A model generated the notes under the pieces. It had not been told where the DNA came from. It searched no databases and saw nothing but the letters and a program-made list of their open reading frames with translations. Below are positions 19,612 through 34,801 of a stretch of DNA of 34,970 bases, piece by piece. How positions within the stretch are numbered: position 1 is the stretch's first letter; each line of letters starts with the position of its first letter. The position numbers and the translations under genes are program-made. This DNA is from a bacterium. GTDB lineage: Bacteria > Patescibacteriota > Minisyncoccia > UBA6257 > GWB1-50-10. Location of the stretch: NCBI GenBank assembly GCA_021823645.1, contig JAKANR010000001.1, positions 1 to 34,970 on the forward strand. Direction: 5' to 3'.

Positions 19612-20013
19612 TTGATAGTAACTGAAACACAAACTAAAAAAATTATTTCAGTCGCTCTTTCATACCTTGGGCACAAATATGAACATGGGTTTGATTGTAT
19701 TGGTTTTGTAAGAAATGTGTATAAGCACGCTGGAATTGACATTCCACTTATTTCAGGAACAACATTTCCTCCGGAAGAATTTAATATTATGGAGGATCAG
19801 TTGTCTAATTCACCAATTGGACATCTTATTTTTCTCAAAGACAGGTATGATCCAAGGAAAGAGAGAGTATGGACTCACGTTGTTCTTACCCTTTCGGAAA
19901 ATGAGTGTATCCATTCTTCCATCTTTTATGGGGAGAAAGTCTCTATTTCTAATCTCCAAGAAATAATGGAAAAACGGTATGATTTTGTGCCAAGTAAGCC
20001 GCCAAATGAATGA
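19612..20013 (+). CDS. NlpC/P60-like cysteine peptidase domain protein
   Basis: A 133-residue protein matching the NlpC/P60 papain-like fold. The catalytic cysteine is in HGFDCIGFVRNVYKHAGI (Cys29) and the histidine in WTHVVLTLSE (His89), with a further His at 101 that could be the third polar residue. Family members usually cut gamma-D-Glu to diamino acid bonds in peptidoglycan, or act as amidases. There is no signal peptide or binding domain, so it is either cytoplasmic or exported by an unseen route. The start is a TTG with a good Shine-Dalgarno AAAGGAG 7 bases upstream. It has its own promoter and terminator between lepA and tuf, suggesting an independent, possibly acquired, unit. Confidence 0.75.
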   Translation: MIVTETQTKKIISVALSYLGHKYEHGFDCIGFVRNVYKHAGIDIPLISGTTFPPEEFNIMEDQLSNSPIGHLIFLKDRYDPRKERVWTHVVLTLSENECIHSSIFYGEKVSISNLQEIMEKRYDFVPSKPPNE

Positions 20014-20029
20014 AATTGGCGGTTTTTTT
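19999..20029 (+). terminator. Rho-independent terminator overlapping the NlpC/P60-like stop codon
   Basis: CCGCCAA (19999-20005) pairs with TTGGCGG (20016-20022), followed by TTTTTTT. The stop codon TGA (20011-20013) lies in the loop, so the hairpin begins within the last codons of the gene. Confidence 0.9.
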
Positions 20030-20282
20030 GTCCACAGAATTCGGCTTTCTTGACCCTGTGGTGAAAATTTAATATCACAATTTATGATATTGGTTTTTAA
20101 GATCGGGTGTATAAAATATAAGAAAATACCTACCTTTTTCGACATCTGTATTGTGCACAATTGAATTTCTACTGCAGGGTTGACATTATCCATGATATCA
20201 ATAAGAATTATACTTACTATTAGTATCAATAGGTCGAATCATTTTGCTCGAAACAAAAATATAAAAATAAACTCATTTTATT
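20030..20282 (+). promoter_or_regulatory. tuf: Upstream region of tuf-rpsJ
   Basis: This 253-base gap holds several possible signals but no gene. CCACAG (20032-20037) pairs with CTGTGG (20056-20061), and AATATCA (20071-20077) pairs with TGATATT (20085-20091). ATTGTGCACAAT (20150-20161) is a perfect 12-bp palindrome that could be an operator. TTGACA at 20180 is a perfect -35, but the best -10-like word, TATACT at 20209, is 23 bases away, so the promoter assignment is uncertain; AAGAAT at 20203 has correct spacing but is weak. A small hairpin ATACT-AGTAT (from 20210) precedes the leader. Confidence 0.4.
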
Positions 20283-21482
20283 ATGGCAGAAAAACAAAAA
20301 TTTGAGCGTAACAAGCCACATGTAAATGTGGGAACAATCGGGCACGTTGACCACGGGAAGACAACTCTTACCGCGGCGATTACGCACGTGCTTTTCATGA
20401 AAGGTCTTATTAAGAAGGAAGAAGGAGTAAATCAGATTGATAATGCTCCAGAAGAGAAAGCGCGCGGTATTACGATCGCGTTGCACCACTCGGAGTATGA
20501 GTCGGAAAAGCGTCACTACGCGCATATTGATGCGCCGGGTCACGCCGATTACATCAAGAACATGATTACCGGTGCGGCACAGATGGACGGTGCGGTGCTT
20601 GTGGTTGCGGCAACCGATGGTCCAATGCCTCAAACTCGAGAACATATTTTGCTCGCACACCAAGTCGGTGTTCCCCGCATTATTGTGTTTTTGAACAAAT
20701 GTGACATGGTTGACGATCCGGAACTTATCGATCTTGTTGAATCGGAAGTGCGTGAACTCCTCAAAAAATATGAATTTGACGGAGATAATGCGCCGGTTAT
20801 TCGCGGGTCGGCATTGAAAGCGCTCGAATCGAAAACCGCAGATGATCCGAATGCAAAGTGCATTCTCGATCTCGTAAACGCATTGGATACTTATATTGAA
20901 GATCCGGTTCGTGAAACCGAAAAGCCATTCCTTATGCCAATTGAAGATATTTTCTCGATTGAAGGACGTGGAACGGTGGTAACCGGCCGTATTGAAAGAG
21001 GAGCGGTAAATGTGAACGAAGAAATCGAAATTATCGGTCTTCGCCCAACACAGAAAACCGTGGTAACCGGAGTTGAAATGTTCCAAAAAACACTCGACAA
21101 GGGAATCGCGGGAGACAACGTCGGTATTCTTCTCCGTGGATTGAAGAAGGAAGACGTGGAGCGCGGACAAGTACTTGCAAAACCGGGTTCCGTTACCCCA
21201 CATACCGAATTTAGCGCCGAGGTATATATCTTGAGTAAGGAGGAAGGAGGACGTCATACTCCATTCTTCAAGGGATATAAACCGCAATTCTACATTCGTA
21301 CCACCGATGTTACCGGAGAAGTATTTCTCCCCGAAGGAACCGAAATGGTTATGCCTGGAGATACCGTAAGCATCACTGTGAAATTGATTTCGCCGGTTGC
21401 ACTCGAAGAGAAACAGAGATTCGCTATCCGAGAAGGAGGAAAGACTGTCGGTGCGGGAGCGGTAACGAAGATTTCGAAATAG
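20283..21482 (+). CDS. tuf: Elongation factor Tu
   Basis: A 399-residue EF-Tu, the GTPase that brings aminoacyl-tRNA to the ribosomal A site. [10 protein letters not shown] (residues 20-29), [35 protein letters not shown] (136-139) and the domain II and III blocks ([21 protein letters not shown] form [20 protein letters not shown]) are all present. The G3 motif reads DAPGHADY where most bacterial EF-Tu proteins have DCPGHADY; the alanine form is usual in archaeal and eukaryotic EF-1A. It is followed 21 bases later by rpsJ, the usual tuf-rpsJ link, but no fusA, rpsG or rpsL precedes it. Confidence 0.97.
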
Positions 21483-21503
21483 GAAAATTAACATACGATT
21501 CCC

Positions 21504-21836
21504 ATGGCAAAAAAAGAAGATCAAATTCAAAAAGAGCGATTACGATTGCGAGTGAAGGCATACGATGCGAAACTTATCGATTCATCGGTGCGTCAAATTA
21601 TTGAGACAATTCGCGTGCAAGGTGGAGAGGTGGTCGGTCCGATCCCTCTTCCCACCGAGTTCAAGCGATATGCGGTCAACCGCTCGACGTTTGTGCACAA
21701 AAAATCAGGCGAACATTTCGAGCTTCGCGTGCATAAGCGACTTATTGATATCTTAAATCCTCAACAGAAGATTATCGAATCGTTATCGGGTTTGAATTTG
21801 CCCGCGGGAGTGGATGTTGAAATAAAAATGGGTTAG
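21504..21836 (+). CDS. rpsJ: 30S ribosomal protein S10 (uS10)
   Basis: A 110-residue uS10, part of the small-subunit head and also a partner of NusB in antitermination. LRLRVKAYDAKLIDSSVRQIIETIRVQGGEVVGPIPLPTEF and RSTFVHKKSGEHFELRVHKRLIDI are typical. It is a few residues longer than the usual ~102 because of a charged N-terminus (MAKKEDQIQKE). In most bacteria rplC follows directly; here two terminator-like hairpins and an antisense gene come first, so rpsJ is the last gene of a tuf-rpsJ transcript. Confidence 0.96.
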   Translation: MAKKEDQIQKERLRLRVKAYDAKLIDSSVRQIIETIRVQGGEVVGPIPLPTEFKRYAVNRSTFVHKKSGEHFELRVHKRLIDILNPQQKIIESLSGLNLPAGVDVEIKMG

Positions 21837-21872
21837 AAAAAATCATCCCGACATATGTTGGGATGATTTTTT
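21837..21872 (+). terminator. Rho-independent terminator after rpsJ
   Basis: AAAAAATCATCCC pairs with GGGATGATTTTTT around a short loop (GACATATGTT), beginning right after the rpsJ stop codon. The A and T tracts on both sides make it usable in both directions. Confidence 0.92.
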
Positions 21873-21915
21873 ATTTATGGAGAAATAGGGGAGTTAGGTT
21901 TTGAAAAAATAAAAA

Positions 21916-21940
21916 CGCCGGATTTTTTCCGGCATTTTTT
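21916..21940. terminator. Terminator of the antisense small membrane-protein gene
   Basis: GCCGG (21917-21921) pairs with CCGGC (21929-21933), flanked by AAAAA on the left and TTTTTTT on the right. It lies 20 bases after the minus-strand stop codon and should act on leftward transcription, and possibly as a backup for rpsJ. Confidence 0.8.
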
Positions 21941-21959
21941 TAATTTTTAAACGTTGCAG

Positions 21960-22343
21960 TTATTTTGCCTCTAGTCTTTTGAGGGTCTTGGGATCATCAT
22001 TTTCAATTTCCCATCTTTTAACAAAAACGGGAAATGTATATTTCGAAAGTGGTTTTCCGTTTTTGTCATACGCGACTTCCCCCCGACGTTTTGTTTTCCA
22101 GCCGATATTATTTATAAAACCATTTTCGTCGCTGTTTCCGATGAAAACTTCATCCAGTATTTGTTCTGGATGTTTTTTTCCGACATCTGGGAAAAAGAAA
22201 GTCAGCAGAAAAATGATGAAAATAGAGAAAAGATAGGTCAAATCCCAATTGGTAAAGCCCTTAGAGGAACTAACATGAGAGGCAGAAATAAAGAACAATA
22301 TGAGACTAAGAGCACCTATAAAAAGAAATAATTTGCGAGACAT
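21960..22343 (-). CDS. Small membrane protein of unknown function, antisense within the S10 operon
   Basis: A 127-residue protein on the strand opposite to all ribosomal genes here. Two hydrophobic helices (about residues 4-22 and 36-52) are followed by a soluble tail containing GWKTKRRGEVAYDKNGKPLSKYTFPVFVKRW. I do not recognise the family. It is likely a real gene: on the minus strand it has a near-consensus promoter (TTGACC, 17 bases, TGTAAT), a Shine-Dalgarno GGGAGA a few bases before the ATG, and a terminator after the stop. It sits between rpsJ and rplC, where almost all bacteria have contiguous genes. Acquisition by insertion is the likely explanation. Confidence 0.78.
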   Translation of the reverse strand: MSRKLFLFIGALSLILFFISASHVSSSKGFTNWDLTYLFSIFIIFLLTFFFPDVGKKHPEQILDEVFIGNSDENGFINNIGWKTKRRGEVAYDKNGKPLSKYTFPVFVKRWEIENDDPKTLKRLEAK

Positions 22344-22385
22344 AGCATCTCCCTTTCTATTGAAATTATTGATTTGCTATTTGTG

Positions 22386-22414
22386 ATTACAGCATATAAA
22401 AATGTCTCGGTCAA
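22386..22414 (-). promoter_or_regulatory. Promoter of the antisense membrane-protein gene
   Basis: On the minus strand, -35 TTGACC (22414-22409) and -10 TGTAAT (22391-22386) have an exact 17-base spacer. The ATG at 22343 follows, with GGGAGA just upstream of it. Confidence 0.75.
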
Positions 22415-22451
22415 TACTTTGTCAAAGTGGCTTAAAATCAGGGGAAAACGG

Positions 22452-22480
22452 TTGACTAAAATAATGGGGTAGGTTACGAT
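22452..22480 (+). promoter_or_regulatory. Main promoter of the rplC-secY ribosomal operon
   Basis: TTGACT (22452-22457) and TACGAT (22475-22480) have an exact 17-base spacer. Transcription would begin near 22487 and give a leader of about 155 bases before rplC. It diverges from the promoter of the antisense gene 38 bases to the left. Confidence 0.78.
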
Positions 22481-22486
22481 AATACG

Positions 22487-22641
22487 GGTTAGCCATTACT
22501 TTTAATAGGAAAACAGGGCTTTCTCCTGTTGTTTTCTTATCGAAAACATATTAGGATATTTTGGCGTAGTATGAATCCCGTTAAGGTATTAACGGGGATG
22601 GAATGTGCGAATAATAATGCGGGACACTACTTTTAAACATA
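22487..22641 (+). promoter_or_regulatory. rplC: Structured leader of the ribosomal operon
   Basis: The predicted 5' leader of rplC holds a bulged hairpin (GAAAACAGG 22509-22517 with CCTGTTGTTTTC 22525-22536) and the 20-bp mini-element at 22577-22596. A 21-codon open frame from ATG 22571 begins MNPVKVLTG and stops at 22634-22636, five bases before rplC. In E. coli the S10 leader binds L4 for feedback control. A similar role is possible here but the structure is not the same. Confidence 0.45.
22577..22596 (+). repeat. Mini inverted repeat with the termini of the start-codon element family
   Basis: CCCGTTAA pairs perfectly with TTAACGGG around the loop GGTA. It has exactly the ends of the full elements, and ATGAAT precedes it just as at rplX and secY. 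The interior is missing, so it is probably an internally deleted copy or a minimal hairpin of the same kind. The 3' side reads GATGGAAT rather than ATGAAT. Confidence 0.6.
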
Positions 22642-23076
22642 ATGAACAAGATTTTCGCAAAAAAGATAAAAATGACTCAATTCTGGAAGGACGATTCAGT
22701 CGTTCCCGTCACCGTTCTTGAGTTGAAGAAAAAAAATGAAACCGACACACTCGAGATTTTTTCCGTTGGAGAAAAAGTTTCGGTTGCGGGGCTCAGTAAG
22801 GGAAGGGGATTTCAGGGAGTGGTCAAGCGCCATGGATTTCACGGAGGTCCCGCAACGCACGGACAAAAAAATCGATTGAGAGCTCCGGGATCACTCGGTG
22901 CGACCGCTCCTCAGCGTGTTATTAAGGGAAGGAAAATGGCGGGACACATGGGTATGGAGCGCATACACGTGAAAAATCTCGTGGTTGCCGACATTGATAA
23001 AGAAAAAGGATTTATGATGGTTCGCGGAGCGGTTCCCGGAATGCGCGGAACGGTTGTCGAAGTGATAAAGAAATAA
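22642..23076 (+). CDS. rplC: 50S ribosomal protein L3 (uL3), shortened form
   Basis: A 144-residue uL3; the usual length is about 205-215. The N-terminal FAKKIKMTQFW...VVPVTVLE and the C-terminal half (VGEKVSVAGLSKGRGFQGVVKRHGFHGGPATHGQKNRLRAPGSLGA, KGRKMAGHMGMERIHVKNL, VRGAVPGMRGTVVEV) are intact. About 50 residues of the middle domain are missing between VTVLE and IFSVGEK. The long loop that reaches toward the peptidyl-transferase centre is kept. The deletion is clean and in frame, so the protein is probably functional and reduced rather than broken. L3 is an early assembly protein of the large subunit. It is the first gene of the operon driven from 22452. Confidence 0.94.
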   Translation: MNKIFAKKIKMTQFWKDDSVVPVTVLELKKKNETDTLEIFSVGEKVSVAGLSKGRGFQGVVKRHGFHGGPATHGQKNRLRAPGSLGATAPQRVIKGRKMAGHMGMERIHVKNLVVADIDKEKGFMMVRGAVPGMRGTVVEVIKK

Positions 23077-23089
23077 AATCGCACACAGT

Positions 23090-23800
23090 ATGAAACAAAC
23101 AGTTGAAAAAAAATCAAAAAGTGTTCGCACCACCAAACCAAAAACTTCGGATCGCGATGTGCTTTCAAAGGAGATGAAAACCGATATCATCAACAAAGAA
23201 AACAAGAAAGTGGGAACACTCGAGCTTCCCGCGGGAGTTTTTTCGGTGAAATGGAATCCCGAATTGGTGCATCAGATGGTAACCGCGCATCTCGCAAACA
23301 AGAGAAATACGGTTGCACATGCAAAGACGCGGGGTGAAGTTGCGGGAGGAGGGAGAAAGCCATGGCGTCAGAAACACACGGGACGCGCGCGTCACGGATC
23401 AACCCGTTCACCAATTTGGATAGGAGGCGGAGTGACCCACGGACCGAGGAACGATCGTGATTTTTCAAAAAAGACAAATAAAAAAATGAGACGTGCCGCG
23501 CTCTATTCGGCACTGTCGAAGAAATTTACGGACGGACAGTTGATTGTGGTTGATACTTTTAATTTTGGGGCGCCAAAAACAAAAGAGTACGCTGCATTTT
23601 TCAAATATTTTTTCAAAAAGCAGGCAAGCGCACTCGTCGTAGTGGAAAAAGAAACAAAAAATACATTTTTGGGAGCGCGGAATATTCCGGGTGTTTTGGT
23701 TGTCGCCACTCCGGCGGTGAATACCTACGACTGTATGGCGCATAAGTTTATTTTCATCGAGAAAGATGCCGTTGCGGGTATTAAAAAAGCAGACGAATAA
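23090..23800 (+). CDS. rplD: 50S ribosomal protein L4 (uL4)
   Basis: A 236-residue uL4. The conserved exit-tunnel loop is present: KTRGEVAGGGRKPWRQKHTGRARHGSTRSPIWIGGGVTHGP. The later SKKTNKKMRRAALYSALSKK and VVVEKE...ARNIPGVLVVATPAVNTYDC segments are typical. An N-terminal lysine-rich extension of about 35 residues precedes the usual start (INKENKKVGTLELP). L4 lines the peptide exit tunnel and in some bacteria represses its own operon. It lies between rplC and rplW in standard order. Confidence 0.96.
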   Translation: MKQTVEKKSKSVRTTKPKTSDRDVLSKEMKTDIINKENKKVGTLELPAGVFSVKWNPELVHQMVTAHLANKRNTVAHAKTRGEVAGGGRKPWRQKHTGRARHGSTRSPIWIGGGVTHGPRNDRDFSKKTNKKMRRAALYSALSKKFTDGQLIVVDTFNFGAPKTKEYAAFFKYFFKKQASALVVVEKETKNTFLGARNIPGVLVVATPAVNTYDCMAHKFIFIEKDAVAGIKKADE

Positions 23801-23810
23801 ATAGGAGTAT

Positions 23811-24164
23811 ATGGAAACGATTAAAAACAAAACAAAAGAAAAGAAGGTGAAAGCTCCCGCAAAAAAGGAGGAAAACCGCACGTCCGCGATGGCTATTCGG
23901 AATATCATTAAAAAACCGTGGATAAGCGAAAAAGCCCAGCGTTTATACGGCGAAGACCGCTATACGTTTTTGGTAAGTCCCGACGCAAACAAAAGAATGG
24001 TAAAAGAAGAAGTGGAGCGTCGCTATGGAGTGAATGTCGTTTCCATGACCATGACAAGCATTAAGGGAAAAGTAAAAAGGTTTCGCTACTCGACACAACG
24101 CCGAGAGGGAGTGAAAAAGGCCGCGGTGAAAATCAAAAAGGGGCAAAAAATAGAAATCATTTAA
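23811..24164 (+). CDS. rplW: 50S ribosomal protein L23 (uL23)
   Basis: A 117-residue uL23, located at the peptide tunnel exit where chaperones and the signal recognition particle dock. IIKKPWISEKAQRLYGEDRYTFLVSPDANKRMVKEEVERRYGVNVVSMTMTSIKGK is characteristic. A charged N-terminal extension of about 28 residues (MAIRNIIKKPW is where family similarity begins; ATG 23889 is an alternative start) makes it longer than the usual ~95. AGGAG lies just before the first ATG, which supports the longer form. It follows rplD by 10 bases. Confidence 0.95.
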   Translation: METIKNKTKEKKVKAPAKKEENRTSAMAIRNIIKKPWISEKAQRLYGEDRYTFLVSPDANKRMVKEEVERRYGVNVVSMTMTSIKGKVKRFRYSTQRREGVKKAAVKIKKGQKIEII

Positions 24165-24168
24165 TTAT

Positions 24169-24993
24169 ATGAAACAGTATAAGCCAACAACTCCATCGCG
24201 GAGGCACTATACATCAGTTGATTATCGCGCACACATCACCGCAACGAAGCCGTTAAAAAAACTTACCCAGAAATTAAAACAGAACGCGGGAAGAAACAGT
24301 CAGGGGAGAATTACCATGCGCCATCAGGGAGGGGGGAATAAGATCGTGTATCGTACCATTGATTTCAAACAAAATAAAATTGGCGTTCCGGGAGTTGTTG
24401 AAACAATCGAATATGATCCGTATCGCACCGCATTTATCGCACTTGTGAAATACAAAGACGGAGACAAGCGATATATTCTCGCCGCTCACGGATTAAAAGT
24501 TGGAATGTCCGTGATCACTTCGGGGGATGCTCCATTTGAAGTGGGAAATCGAACACAGTTGAAAAGAATTCCTGTGGGAACATTTGTACATAATATTGAA
24601 ATGACGCCGGGGAAAGGGGGACAAATAGCGCGTTCCGCCGGATCTTCTGTACAGGTGCTTGCACATGAAGCGGGATACACTCATTTGAAGATGTCTTCGG
24701 GAGAGGTGCGAAAAGTATTATCGGAGGGTTATGCTTCAATCGGTCAGGTTTCAAATATTGAATATAATCTCGTGAATATCGGAAAGGCGGGTCGTTCTCG
24801 TGCGCTTGGAATACGTCCAACCGTTCGCGGATCCGTAATGAATCCACGCGATCATCCATACGGAGGAGGAGAGGGAAGAACCCAGCGGGGTACCCGAAGA
24901 CCAAAGACAAAATGGGGAAAGATTACCGGAGGACGAAAAACCCGGGATAGGAAAAAGTGGTCGAGTAAACTTATTGTGAAACGAAGAAAATAA
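24169..24993 (+). CDS. rplB: 50S ribosomal protein L2 (uL2)
   Basis: A 274-residue uL2 of normal length, needed for subunit association and close to the peptidyl-transferase centre. Conserved blocks include KPTTPSRRHYTSVDY, GRNSQGRITMRHQGGGNK, RTIDFKQNK, GDAPFEVGNRTQLKRIPVGT and the C-terminal RGSVMNPRDHPYGGGEGRTQ, which holds the conserved histidine (MNPxDHPHGGG in most bacteria; the second His is Tyr here). The start is in the tight context TAATTATATG that recurs throughout this operon, with no Shine-Dalgarno sequence. Confidence 0.97.
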   Translation: MKQYKPTTPSRRHYTSVDYRAHITATKPLKKLTQKLKQNAGRNSQGRITMRHQGGGNKIVYRTIDFKQNKIGVPGVVETIEYDPYRTAFIALVKYKDGDKRYILAAHGLKVGMSVITSGDAPFEVGNRTQLKRIPVGTFVHNIEMTPGKGGQIARSAGSSVQVLAHEAGYTHLKMSSGEVRKVLSEGYASIGQVSNIEYNLVNIGKAGRSRALGIRPTVRGSVMNPRDHPYGGGEGRTQRGTRRPKTKWGKITGGRKTRDRKKWSSKLIVKRRK

Positions 24994-25009
24994 CAGTCAT
25001 CGAATTTTA

Positions 25010-34422: not shown

Positions 34423-34767
34423 CTATGGCATGCGAGAGATTAAAAATGCTATTAATAGGAAAAAAGAACACATTGGAATATAGCCGAGGGCATTCATAAA
34501 ACCTCTGACAAACGGCTTTGTGGGTTCTTGATCTCTAACTCTAAACGGAGTGCCAAGTAAGGTTGATTCCATGTGTGTTTCACCATTTTTTGATGAGATG
34601 GCTGTGCCTATTGCACCGGAAAAGAAAAGAACAAAAAATATGATTCCGCAAAATAACGAGATATCATATCCTCCAATTGTTCCGATATAAACCCCAAGAG
34701 CCGAGATTATAAGCAATAGGGTTCCAAATGCAAACCCTTTCCAATATTGAGACATTCTTATTTTCAT
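34423..34767 (-). CDS. Small membrane protein of unknown function
   Basis: A 114-residue protein on the minus strand, converging on map. Three hydrophobic segments (about residues 10-28, 36-56 and 92-111) enclose a polar loop (SSKNGETHMESTLLGTPFRVRDQEP). I do not recognise the family. The start is the ATG at 34767, with Shine-Dalgarno GGAGAG four bases upstream; an in-frame TTG at 34779 overlaps that site and is less likely. A near-consensus promoter lies 35 bases before the start. The promoter, ribosome site and terminator make this a convincing single-gene unit. Its style matches the antisense gene at 21960. Confidence 0.8.
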   Translation of the reverse strand: MKIRMSQYWKGFAFGTLLLIISALGVYIGTIGGYDISLFCGIIFFVLFFSGAIGTAISSKNGETHMESTLLGTPFRVRDQEPTKPFVRGFMNALGYIPMCSFFLLIAFLISRMP

Positions 34768-34801
34768 TTCACTCTCCAAATGATTTAATTTTCTGTTTTG
34801 T

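What the first reader, a model, noticed from the sequence alone, without database searches (positions are those of the whole stretch)
21837..22480. The S10 operon is broken between rpsJ and rplC by an antisense gene with its own signals
rpsJ and rplC are adjacent in most bacteria. Here they are 805 bases apart, with two terminators, a minus-strand membrane-protein gene with promoter and Shine-Dalgarno site, and a fresh divergent promoter for rplC. Divergent promoters 38 bases apart could allow cross-regulation of ribosomal protein synthesis by the small gene or its transcription.
Basis: seen in the sequence. Interest (0 to 1): 0.5.

Follow-up and report, generated by a model that had tools for sequence, protein, structure and literature searches.

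The report
Hidden promoter and attenuator before rplC
The gap in this ribosomal-protein operon holds a small extra gene, but the more interesting thing is an old, conserved start signal and folding RNA switch in front of the next gene, shared by many related ultra-small bacteria, and in several compact relatives the previous gene's stop codon is part of the start signal.

Summary
In detail: rpsJ and rplC are 805 nt apart, with a rpsJ terminator and a minus-strand ORF of 127 aa between them. The ORF is a genus-level insertion (a shorter homologue sits at the same place in the one held congener). The rplC promoter is not fresh. In most relatives examined, rplC has its own promoter followed at once by a short leader: a 5'-terminal strand "a" (here CGGGUUAGCC) complementary to the loop and upper stem (a') of a terminator-like hairpin. 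Own a:a' pairing beats swapped pairing over 80 rule-selected leaders (z -8.7, 0/5000; within families z -6.5); shifted-window controls show nothing. In 70 of 80, a' overlaps the terminator's 3' arm, so the two full folds exclude each other: an attenuator-like switch. In compact relatives the promoter usually lies inside rpsJ, with the stop codon as -10 element (stop TAR+NAT in 31/48 compact, 7/62 other genomes). In the window's lineage the promoter lies downstream of the insert. Function, ligand and transcription starts are inferred, not shown. Rfam and the papers searched gave no earlier description. The cross-regulation idea is untested.

The parts
21504..21836 (+). rpsJ (S10); in compact relatives its last codons and stop codon usually contain the rplC promoter, here they do not (TGGATG at the -35 register, TAGAAA at the stop codon)
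   Evidence: Pfam Ribosomal_S10; promoter register table
21837..21872 (+). strong terminator-like hairpin after rpsJ
   Evidence: 16-bp stem with T tail
21911..21939 (.). bidirectional terminator-like hairpin, end of the minus-strand gene
21960..22343 (-). 127-aa ORF: hydrophobic N-terminal half (by eye; no membrane predictor was run) plus small soluble domain of unknown function; genus-level insert
   Evidence: no Pfam or NCBIfam family at cut-off; 61-aa homologue at same place in G001; soluble domain found in scattered genomes
22386..22414 (-). promoter of the minus gene, TTGACC-17-TGTAAT
   Evidence: read; region and Shine-Dalgarno conserved in G001, which has TTGACT-17-TATACT (by eye)
22452..22480 (+). 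rplC promoter TTGACT-17-TACGAT
   Evidence: same arrangement, at least 9 of 12 and 2-14 nt 5' of strand a, in 30 of 35 hand-picked leaders
22464..22472 (+). ATGGGGTAG, possible fossil copy of an rpsJ 3' end (Met-Gly-stop) inside the displaced promoter
   Evidence: similarity of the 55 nt 5' of a to own rpsJ 3' end reached by 19 of 500 shuffles; same nine letters in G026, where the fossil is clearer
22485..22494 (+). leader strand a (CGGGTTAGCC), at or next to the predicted transcription start
22505..22540 (+). terminator-like leader hairpin; its loop and upper stem (a', 22516-22526) are complementary to strand a
   Evidence: fold; hit of the covariance model built with this sequence among 16 (E 7.5e-7, by construction); pairing tests
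22642..23076 (+). rplC (L3), first gene downstream of the leader
   Evidence: Pfam Ribosomal_L3

Best explanation
The gap is an old regulatory boundary, not a new break. In this order of Patescibacteria, rplC and the genes after it are transcribed from their own sigma-70-type promoter. In most compact members that promoter lies inside the 3' end of rpsJ: the -35 in its Val-Asp codons, and the -10 made of the rpsJ stop codon plus three bases. I take this as the older state, though no tree was made. The transcript starts with strand a (about 10 nt). The next structure is a terminator-like hairpin whose loop and upper stem (a') pair with a. While the hairpin's 3' arm is still unmade or inside the polymerase, a:a' can form and act as antiterminator. 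Once the 3' arm is out, the more stable terminator can displace it. rplC expression is thus set by a co-transcriptional choice between two exclusive folds (transcription attenuation). By analogy with known ribosomal-protein leaders, a ribosomal protein of the operon (L3 or L4 first) or polymerase pausing most likely tips the choice. In the window's genus, DNA carrying a small gene lies between rpsJ and this promoter-leader unit, which stayed attached to rplC. Shown by sequence: the promoter-like site and its register in rpsJ, the a:a' covariation, the exclusivity of the full folds, and the genus-level gene. Inferred: transcription start, termination, regulation, ligand and direction of the change.
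For: (1) Pairing. Rule-selected hairpins (3'-most with a T tail) in 80 of 110 genomes: own a:a' energy -939 versus permuted -745, z -8.69, 0/5000; within-family permutation (72 genomes) z -6.51, 0/5000; controls (windows shifted 60 and 100 nt upstream, 60 nt downstream) z +0.6, +0.5, +0.4 (a repeat gives the same). On 35 hand-picked leaders the signal peaks at offset 0 (z -6.9), is weaker at +5 (-4.2, overlapping) and -5 (-2.0), and is absent at -45 to -10 and at +10 and +15; with one leader per group (20), 2/20000. Pairs of quite different sequence: GCUUUAGG/CCUAAAGC (G015), UUAGCUC/GAGCUAA (G004), CGGAUUUAGCU/GGCUAAAUCUG (G222), GGUAAGAACC/GGUUUUCUACC (L132, read). (2) Exclusivity. a' runs into the terminator's 3' arm in 70 of 80; RNA cut before that arm folds a:a' with 5 or more pairs in 63 of 80 (7 pairs in the window), full-length RNA folds the hairpin in 75 of 80. 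(3) Promoter. At least 9 of 12 in 30 of 35. Stop codon TAR+NAT in 31/48 compact versus 7/62 others (Fisher 5e-9), versus 7/48 at the rplC stop of the same compact genomes (8e-7); score 8.33 at the right register, at most 5.81 at 24 others. With other cuts (100, 150 nt) p is 8e-12 and 7e-8; with eight doubtful rplC starts left out, 30/47 versus 7/55, p 1e-7. In the window's family all 5 genomes with a within 11 nt of the stop have TTGACG at that register, 0 of the other 32 have TTGAC there. (4) Place. Of 24 genomes with a model hit, 20 have it 5' of rplC (and coordinates). (5) Displacement. G026 keeps AAGATGGGGTAGGATGGTACGGG starting 31 nt after its true stop; its congener G010 has AAGATGGGTTAGGATGGTACGGG at the true rpsJ end.
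Against: No expression data: start sites, termination and regulation are all inferred. The window's own a:a' is one of the weaker ones (-10.5 to -12.1; 8 of 19 foreign loops do as well; single-genome shuffle p 0.23). Single-genome tests are weak overall (9 of 32 family members and 3 of 12 others at p<=0.05). The automatic rule finds no hairpin in 30 of 110 genomes, and within families f21, f23 and f17 alone the swap test is not significant (z -1.6, -0.5, -1.1). The rule demands a T tail, so T-richness is not independent evidence. The sequence model R1 hits only 24 of 244 genomes of the order, 3 of them with no rplC on the fetched stretch and 1 not checked. 17 of 48 compact genomes lack TAR+NAT at the rpsJ stop. 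Similarity of the DNA before a to the genome's own rpsJ end is no better than shuffles in most of the 22 genomes tested with displaced promoters. A protein-binding site is not evident: little sequence is conserved beyond an AGCC/GGCU tendency. By eye, T tails are often only four T.
Confidence: 0.68

Rival explanations
1. The conserved pair is not a switch but a static structure: a and the hairpin loop form a short pseudoknot at the very 5' end of the mRNA that protects it from 5'-end-dependent decay or positions the ribosome near the rplC start, and termination is incidental.
For: a starts at or next to the predicted 5' end; the hairpin often ends only 7-20 nt before the rplC ATG and little Shine-Dalgarno sequence is seen there (by eye); four pairs (AGCC/GGCU) could coexist with the hairpin.
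Against: The full a:a' duplex (median 9 pairs) should not coexist with the hairpin: a' runs into its 3' arm in 70 of 80 and none of 80 leaves 4 or more free bases there (the geometric argument is from general knowledge of pseudoknots). T-rich tails are common, but the rule demanded them, so this is partly circular.
Confidence: 0.2
2. One reading: the minus-strand gene or its transcription controls rplC through the divergent promoters.
For: The -35 boxes of the two promoters are about 38 bases apart; the minus gene with its promoter and Shine-Dalgarno region is kept in the congener G001.
Against: The rplC promoter and leader exist in relatives without this gene; ten loci with homologues or weak matches of the protein show none of tuf, rpsJ, rplC, rplD, rplW, rplB within about 1.5 kb; other relatives have other DNA in the gap.
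Confidence: 0.06
3. The strand and hairpin are ordinary neutral intergenic sequence and the pairing reflects shared ancestry or composition.
For: Single-genome tests are weak; three families alone are not significant.
Against: Within-family permutation 0/5000, flat controls at other offsets, and strongly different but complementary sequences between lineages.
Confidence: 0.04

Closest known systems
E. coli S10 operon leader, attenuated by uL4 (passages of PMC10931766 seen)
   Same: Ribosomal-protein cluster with rplC and rplD; leader with a Rho-independent terminator; premature termination believed to set expression.
   Different: [quoted passage not shown] here it is short, sits between rpsJ and rplC, and its conserved feature is a 5'-terminal strand paired with the terminator loop. 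uL4 binding untested.
B. subtilis rplJL leader, L10(L12)4 (abstract of PMC4538822 seen)
   Same: Antiterminator and intrinsic terminator before ribosomal-protein genes.
   Different: Other genes, an additional anti-antiterminator structure, known ligand; here no third structure was recognised.
L4 leader motif of Archaeoglobi, rplC-rplD-rplW-rplB (Table 1 in section 5 of PMC7247131)
   Same: Candidate leader in front of rplC as first gene of the unit.
   Different: Archaeal; rated borderline there; that table lists no leader in Patescibacteria.

Membership tests
Ribosomal-protein leader (r-leader) | lies consistently in the 5' UTR of ribosomal-protein genes | tested here: met
   of 24 genomes with a model hit 20 have it 5' of rplC, 1 unchecked, 3 without rplC on the fetched stretch; 80 of 110 rpsJ-rplC gaps hold a T-tailed hairpin by rule; that it is transcribed is inferred
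Ribosomal-protein leader (r-leader) | conserved RNA pairing supported by covariation | tested here: met
   swap and slide tests
Ribosomal-protein leader (r-leader) | binds a ribosomal protein encoded in the operon | not testable with these tools
   no binding data
Ribosomal-protein leader (r-leader) | likeness to the rRNA site of that protein | not tested
   no comparison with 23S rRNA was run
E. coli-type S10 leader | located upstream of rpsJ as first gene | tested here: not met
   element lies between rpsJ and rplC
Any Rfam 15 family | match at or above the gathering score | tested here: not met
   scan of 20000-25000 at E<=5 lists nothing over 22481-22641; the 13 listed matches all lie below their gathering scores
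Intrinsic terminator / attenuator | GC-rich hairpin with T tail, and a competing upstream strand | tested here: met
   termination itself not measured
Recent mobile-element insertion (minus gene) | transposase or repeat at the site | tested here: inconclusive
   none recognised among the ORFs of the window's gap (ends were not searched for target-site duplications); in G001 the contig ends beside the minus gene in an ORF that looks like a transposase start (recalled likeness, not searched), and 43 nt of that end recur at the start of another contig

The most novel reading that the evidence does not exclude
A new class of ribosomal-protein attenuator, widespread in an order of Patescibacteria, in which the first ten nucleotides of the mRNA are the antiterminator. 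Because strand a begins at the transcription start, start-site choice or 5'-end trimming could itself decide whether rplC is read, so the switch might need no dedicated protein. In compact members the promoter is written into rpsJ codons and its stop codon.
Probability: 0.22. Interest if true: 0.82.

Novelty: new variant of a known kind. Interest (0 to 1): 0.62.

Why it matters
Little is known about gene regulation in these ultra-small, mostly uncultured bacteria. A conserved attenuator before rplC would be a candidate ribosomal-protein leader for the group, would suggest that the textbook S10 operon is two units there, and gives a clear case of a stop codon and codon choice constrained by a promoter. 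Each part can be tested with short synthetic DNA in ordinary laboratory strains.

Tried and rejected
Rejected: antisense regulation of rpsJ or rplC by the minus gene (no overlap). Rejected: Rfam weak matches within 21743-22045 (AaHKsRNA41, STnc240 and others), which seem to follow the two terminators and lie far below gathering scores. Rejected: naming the minus protein (best Pfam E 0.044, NCBIfam 0.16). Led nowhere: single-genome shuffle test of a:a' (underpowered, and it often picked another hairpin); MAFFT alignment A1 for pair counting (it misaligns GGGTTAGCC against GGGTTTAGCC; one search failed on string length and was not repeated); G001, whose assembly gave no match to rplC or rplB, so its leader could not be compared.

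Selection told: the 30 and 35 leaders were picked by eye, partly for complementarity; one search repeats the test with a mechanical rule and drops 30 of 110 genomes without a qualifying hairpin. Of 56 relatives with rplC I used 44: six had no rpsJ on the stretch, six were not fetched. That makes 110. The compact cut (132 nt) was chosen after seeing the gap lengths; other cuts are. At least eight rplC starts in the set are wrong or doubtful (G018, G037, G046, G055, G182, G189, G190, G216); correcting three changes no count, leaving all eight out gives 30/47 versus 7/55.

Full report
What is there. The window is one whole contig (G000:C14) of a 0.75-Mb genome. Among named records, the same leader is seen for instance in JAGVBU010000006.1, Candidatus Paceibacterota. 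The order tuf, rpsJ, 805-nt gap, rplC is confirmed; the following ORFs match rplD, rplW and rplB of relatives. rpsJ is followed by a 16-bp terminator-like hairpin. The gap holds a 127-aa minus-strand ORF with promoter-like and Shine-Dalgarno sequences.

The minus gene. It has no Pfam or NCBIfam family. Of 58 other relatives, 4 have a match at E<=0.01: G017 (3e-8, in the soluble half) and three weak ones, two of them with stops inside. Of 333 other genomes of the class, 7 match at E<=0.001, all in the soluble half (HPE..EVF..N..WKTKR.G..AYD..G..PVFV, by eye), one with a stop inside. None of ten such loci examined shows tuf, rpsJ, rplC, rplD, rplW or rplB nearby. The congener G001 has a 61-aa ORF at the same place, similar to the first 54 residues (33% identity, E 1e-6; 0 of 2000 shuffles), with similar promoter and Shine-Dalgarno sequence. 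Against this: the 127-aa search did not report it. The G001 contig ends there, in a sequence of which 43 nt recur at the start of another contig, and no rplC or rplB match is found in that assembly. So the gene is an insertion at least as old as the genus, as far as these two genomes show.

The gap in relatives. rpsJ-rplC gaps run from 61 to 1931 nt in the 110 genomes examined, with at least eight doubtful rplC starts. Some gaps hold other small open frames on the plus strand (G011, G004, G024; by eye). A terminator-like hairpin within about 70 nt of the rpsJ stop occurs in 18 of 62 spread-out genomes; shuffles give 0.4.

The leader. Before rplC most family members have TTGAC-17-TAnnAT, then GGGTTTAGCC or a variant, then a hairpin such as AAAACAACAGGGCTTGCCCCTGTTGTTTT. 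The first strand (a) is complementary to the loop and upper stem (a'). A swap test on 30 leaders gave -368.8 against a permuted mean of -281.4 (sd 13.7), 0 of 20000. As these were picked by eye, I added controls. The signal sits at offset 0 (z -6.9), falls at +5 and -5, and vanishes at the six offsets further away (35 leaders). With a mechanical choice of hairpin and a free 60-nt window, z is -8.69 over 80 genomes and -6.51 when swaps stay within families, both 0 of 5000; three control windows give z near +0.5 (repeated). Families f1, f6 and f27 reach low values alone (0, 6 and 47 of 3000); f21, f23 and f17 do not (162, 914 and 437 of 3000).

How it could work. a' runs into the 3' arm of the hairpin in 70 of 80, and the full duplex (median 9 pairs) leaves no linker to span it, so full a:a' and terminator should exclude each other. 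RNA cut before the 3' arm folds a:a' in 63 of 80, full-length RNA the hairpin in 75 of 80; since a was defined there as the best duplex, the first number is partly built in. I therefore read it as an attenuator whose antiterminator is the 5' end of the transcript. What tips it is unknown; L3 or L4 is a guess from known leaders.

The promoter in rpsJ. In compact genomes the -35 falls in the Val-Asp codons of rpsJ and the -10 is the stop codon plus three bases. TAR followed by NAT: 31 of 48 compact, 7 of 62 others (Fisher 5e-9), 7 of 48 at the rplC stop of the compact genomes. The combined score reaches 8 of 12 in 37 of 48 against 14 of 62. The mean 12-letter score is 8.33 in register and at most 5.81 in 24 shifted registers; part of it comes from the conserved amino acids. 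In the window's family 5 of 5 genomes with a within 11 nt of the stop have TTGACG, 0 of 32 others have TTGAC at that register (a few of these 32 have a longer or shifted rpsJ end, so another register, such as G027). Where the promoter is displaced, traces of an rpsJ end remain in some: clear in G026 and G013, suggestive in the window (9 of 500 shuffles for G013, 19 of 500 for the window; G026's own rpsJ end is no match, 287 of 500, and the case there rests on its congener G010). Most other displaced promoters show no such likeness. No tree was made, so that the compact state is older is a judgement.

Known or new. Rfam has no match. A covariance model of 16 family leaders finds 24 of 244 genomes, 20 of them 5' of rplC, 1 unchecked, 3 without rplC on the fetched stretch; it is tuned to the family's sequence and misses most of the order. 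The results listed by the paper searches (most lists are capped) showed no leader in Patescibacteria by title or abstract; PMC7247131 (section 5 with Table 1 read) lists none there. Subscription papers and supplements were not searchable.

Verdict. It is a new variant of a known kind: a ribosomal-protein leader of attenuator type with an unusual layout.

Noticed in passing
window 22577-22596: A second perfect hairpin (CCCGTTAA-GGTA-TTAACGGG) between the leader and rplC; the following letters TTAACGGGGATGGAA resemble TTAACGGGAATGGAA in the rplC leader of G058.
   Followed up: no
L057 2225-2318 (G001): Contig end next to the minus gene holds an ORF start that looks like a transposase N-terminus (recalled likeness); 43 nt recur at the start of contig C13; no rplC or rplB match in this assembly of about 98% completeness.
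   Followed up: partly
L024, L026, L022 (G011, G004, G024), rpsJ-rplC gap: Other small open frames occupy the same gap in relatives, so the place between the rpsJ end and the rplC promoter seems to tolerate inserts.
   Followed up: no
window 22541-22641 and relatives: By eye, rplC shows no clear Shine-Dalgarno sequence in the window and several relatives, while the minus-strand gene has one.
   Followed up: no
L139 (Portnoybacteria) and L128 (Wolfebacteria): Leader-like a/hairpin pairs before rplC are visible by eye, so the element may be wider than the order.
   Followed up: no
window 34423-34779 (-): 118-aa ORF with TTG start and hydrophobic stretches and no Pfam family at cut-off; unrelated in appearance to the 127-aa protein.
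   Followed up: no
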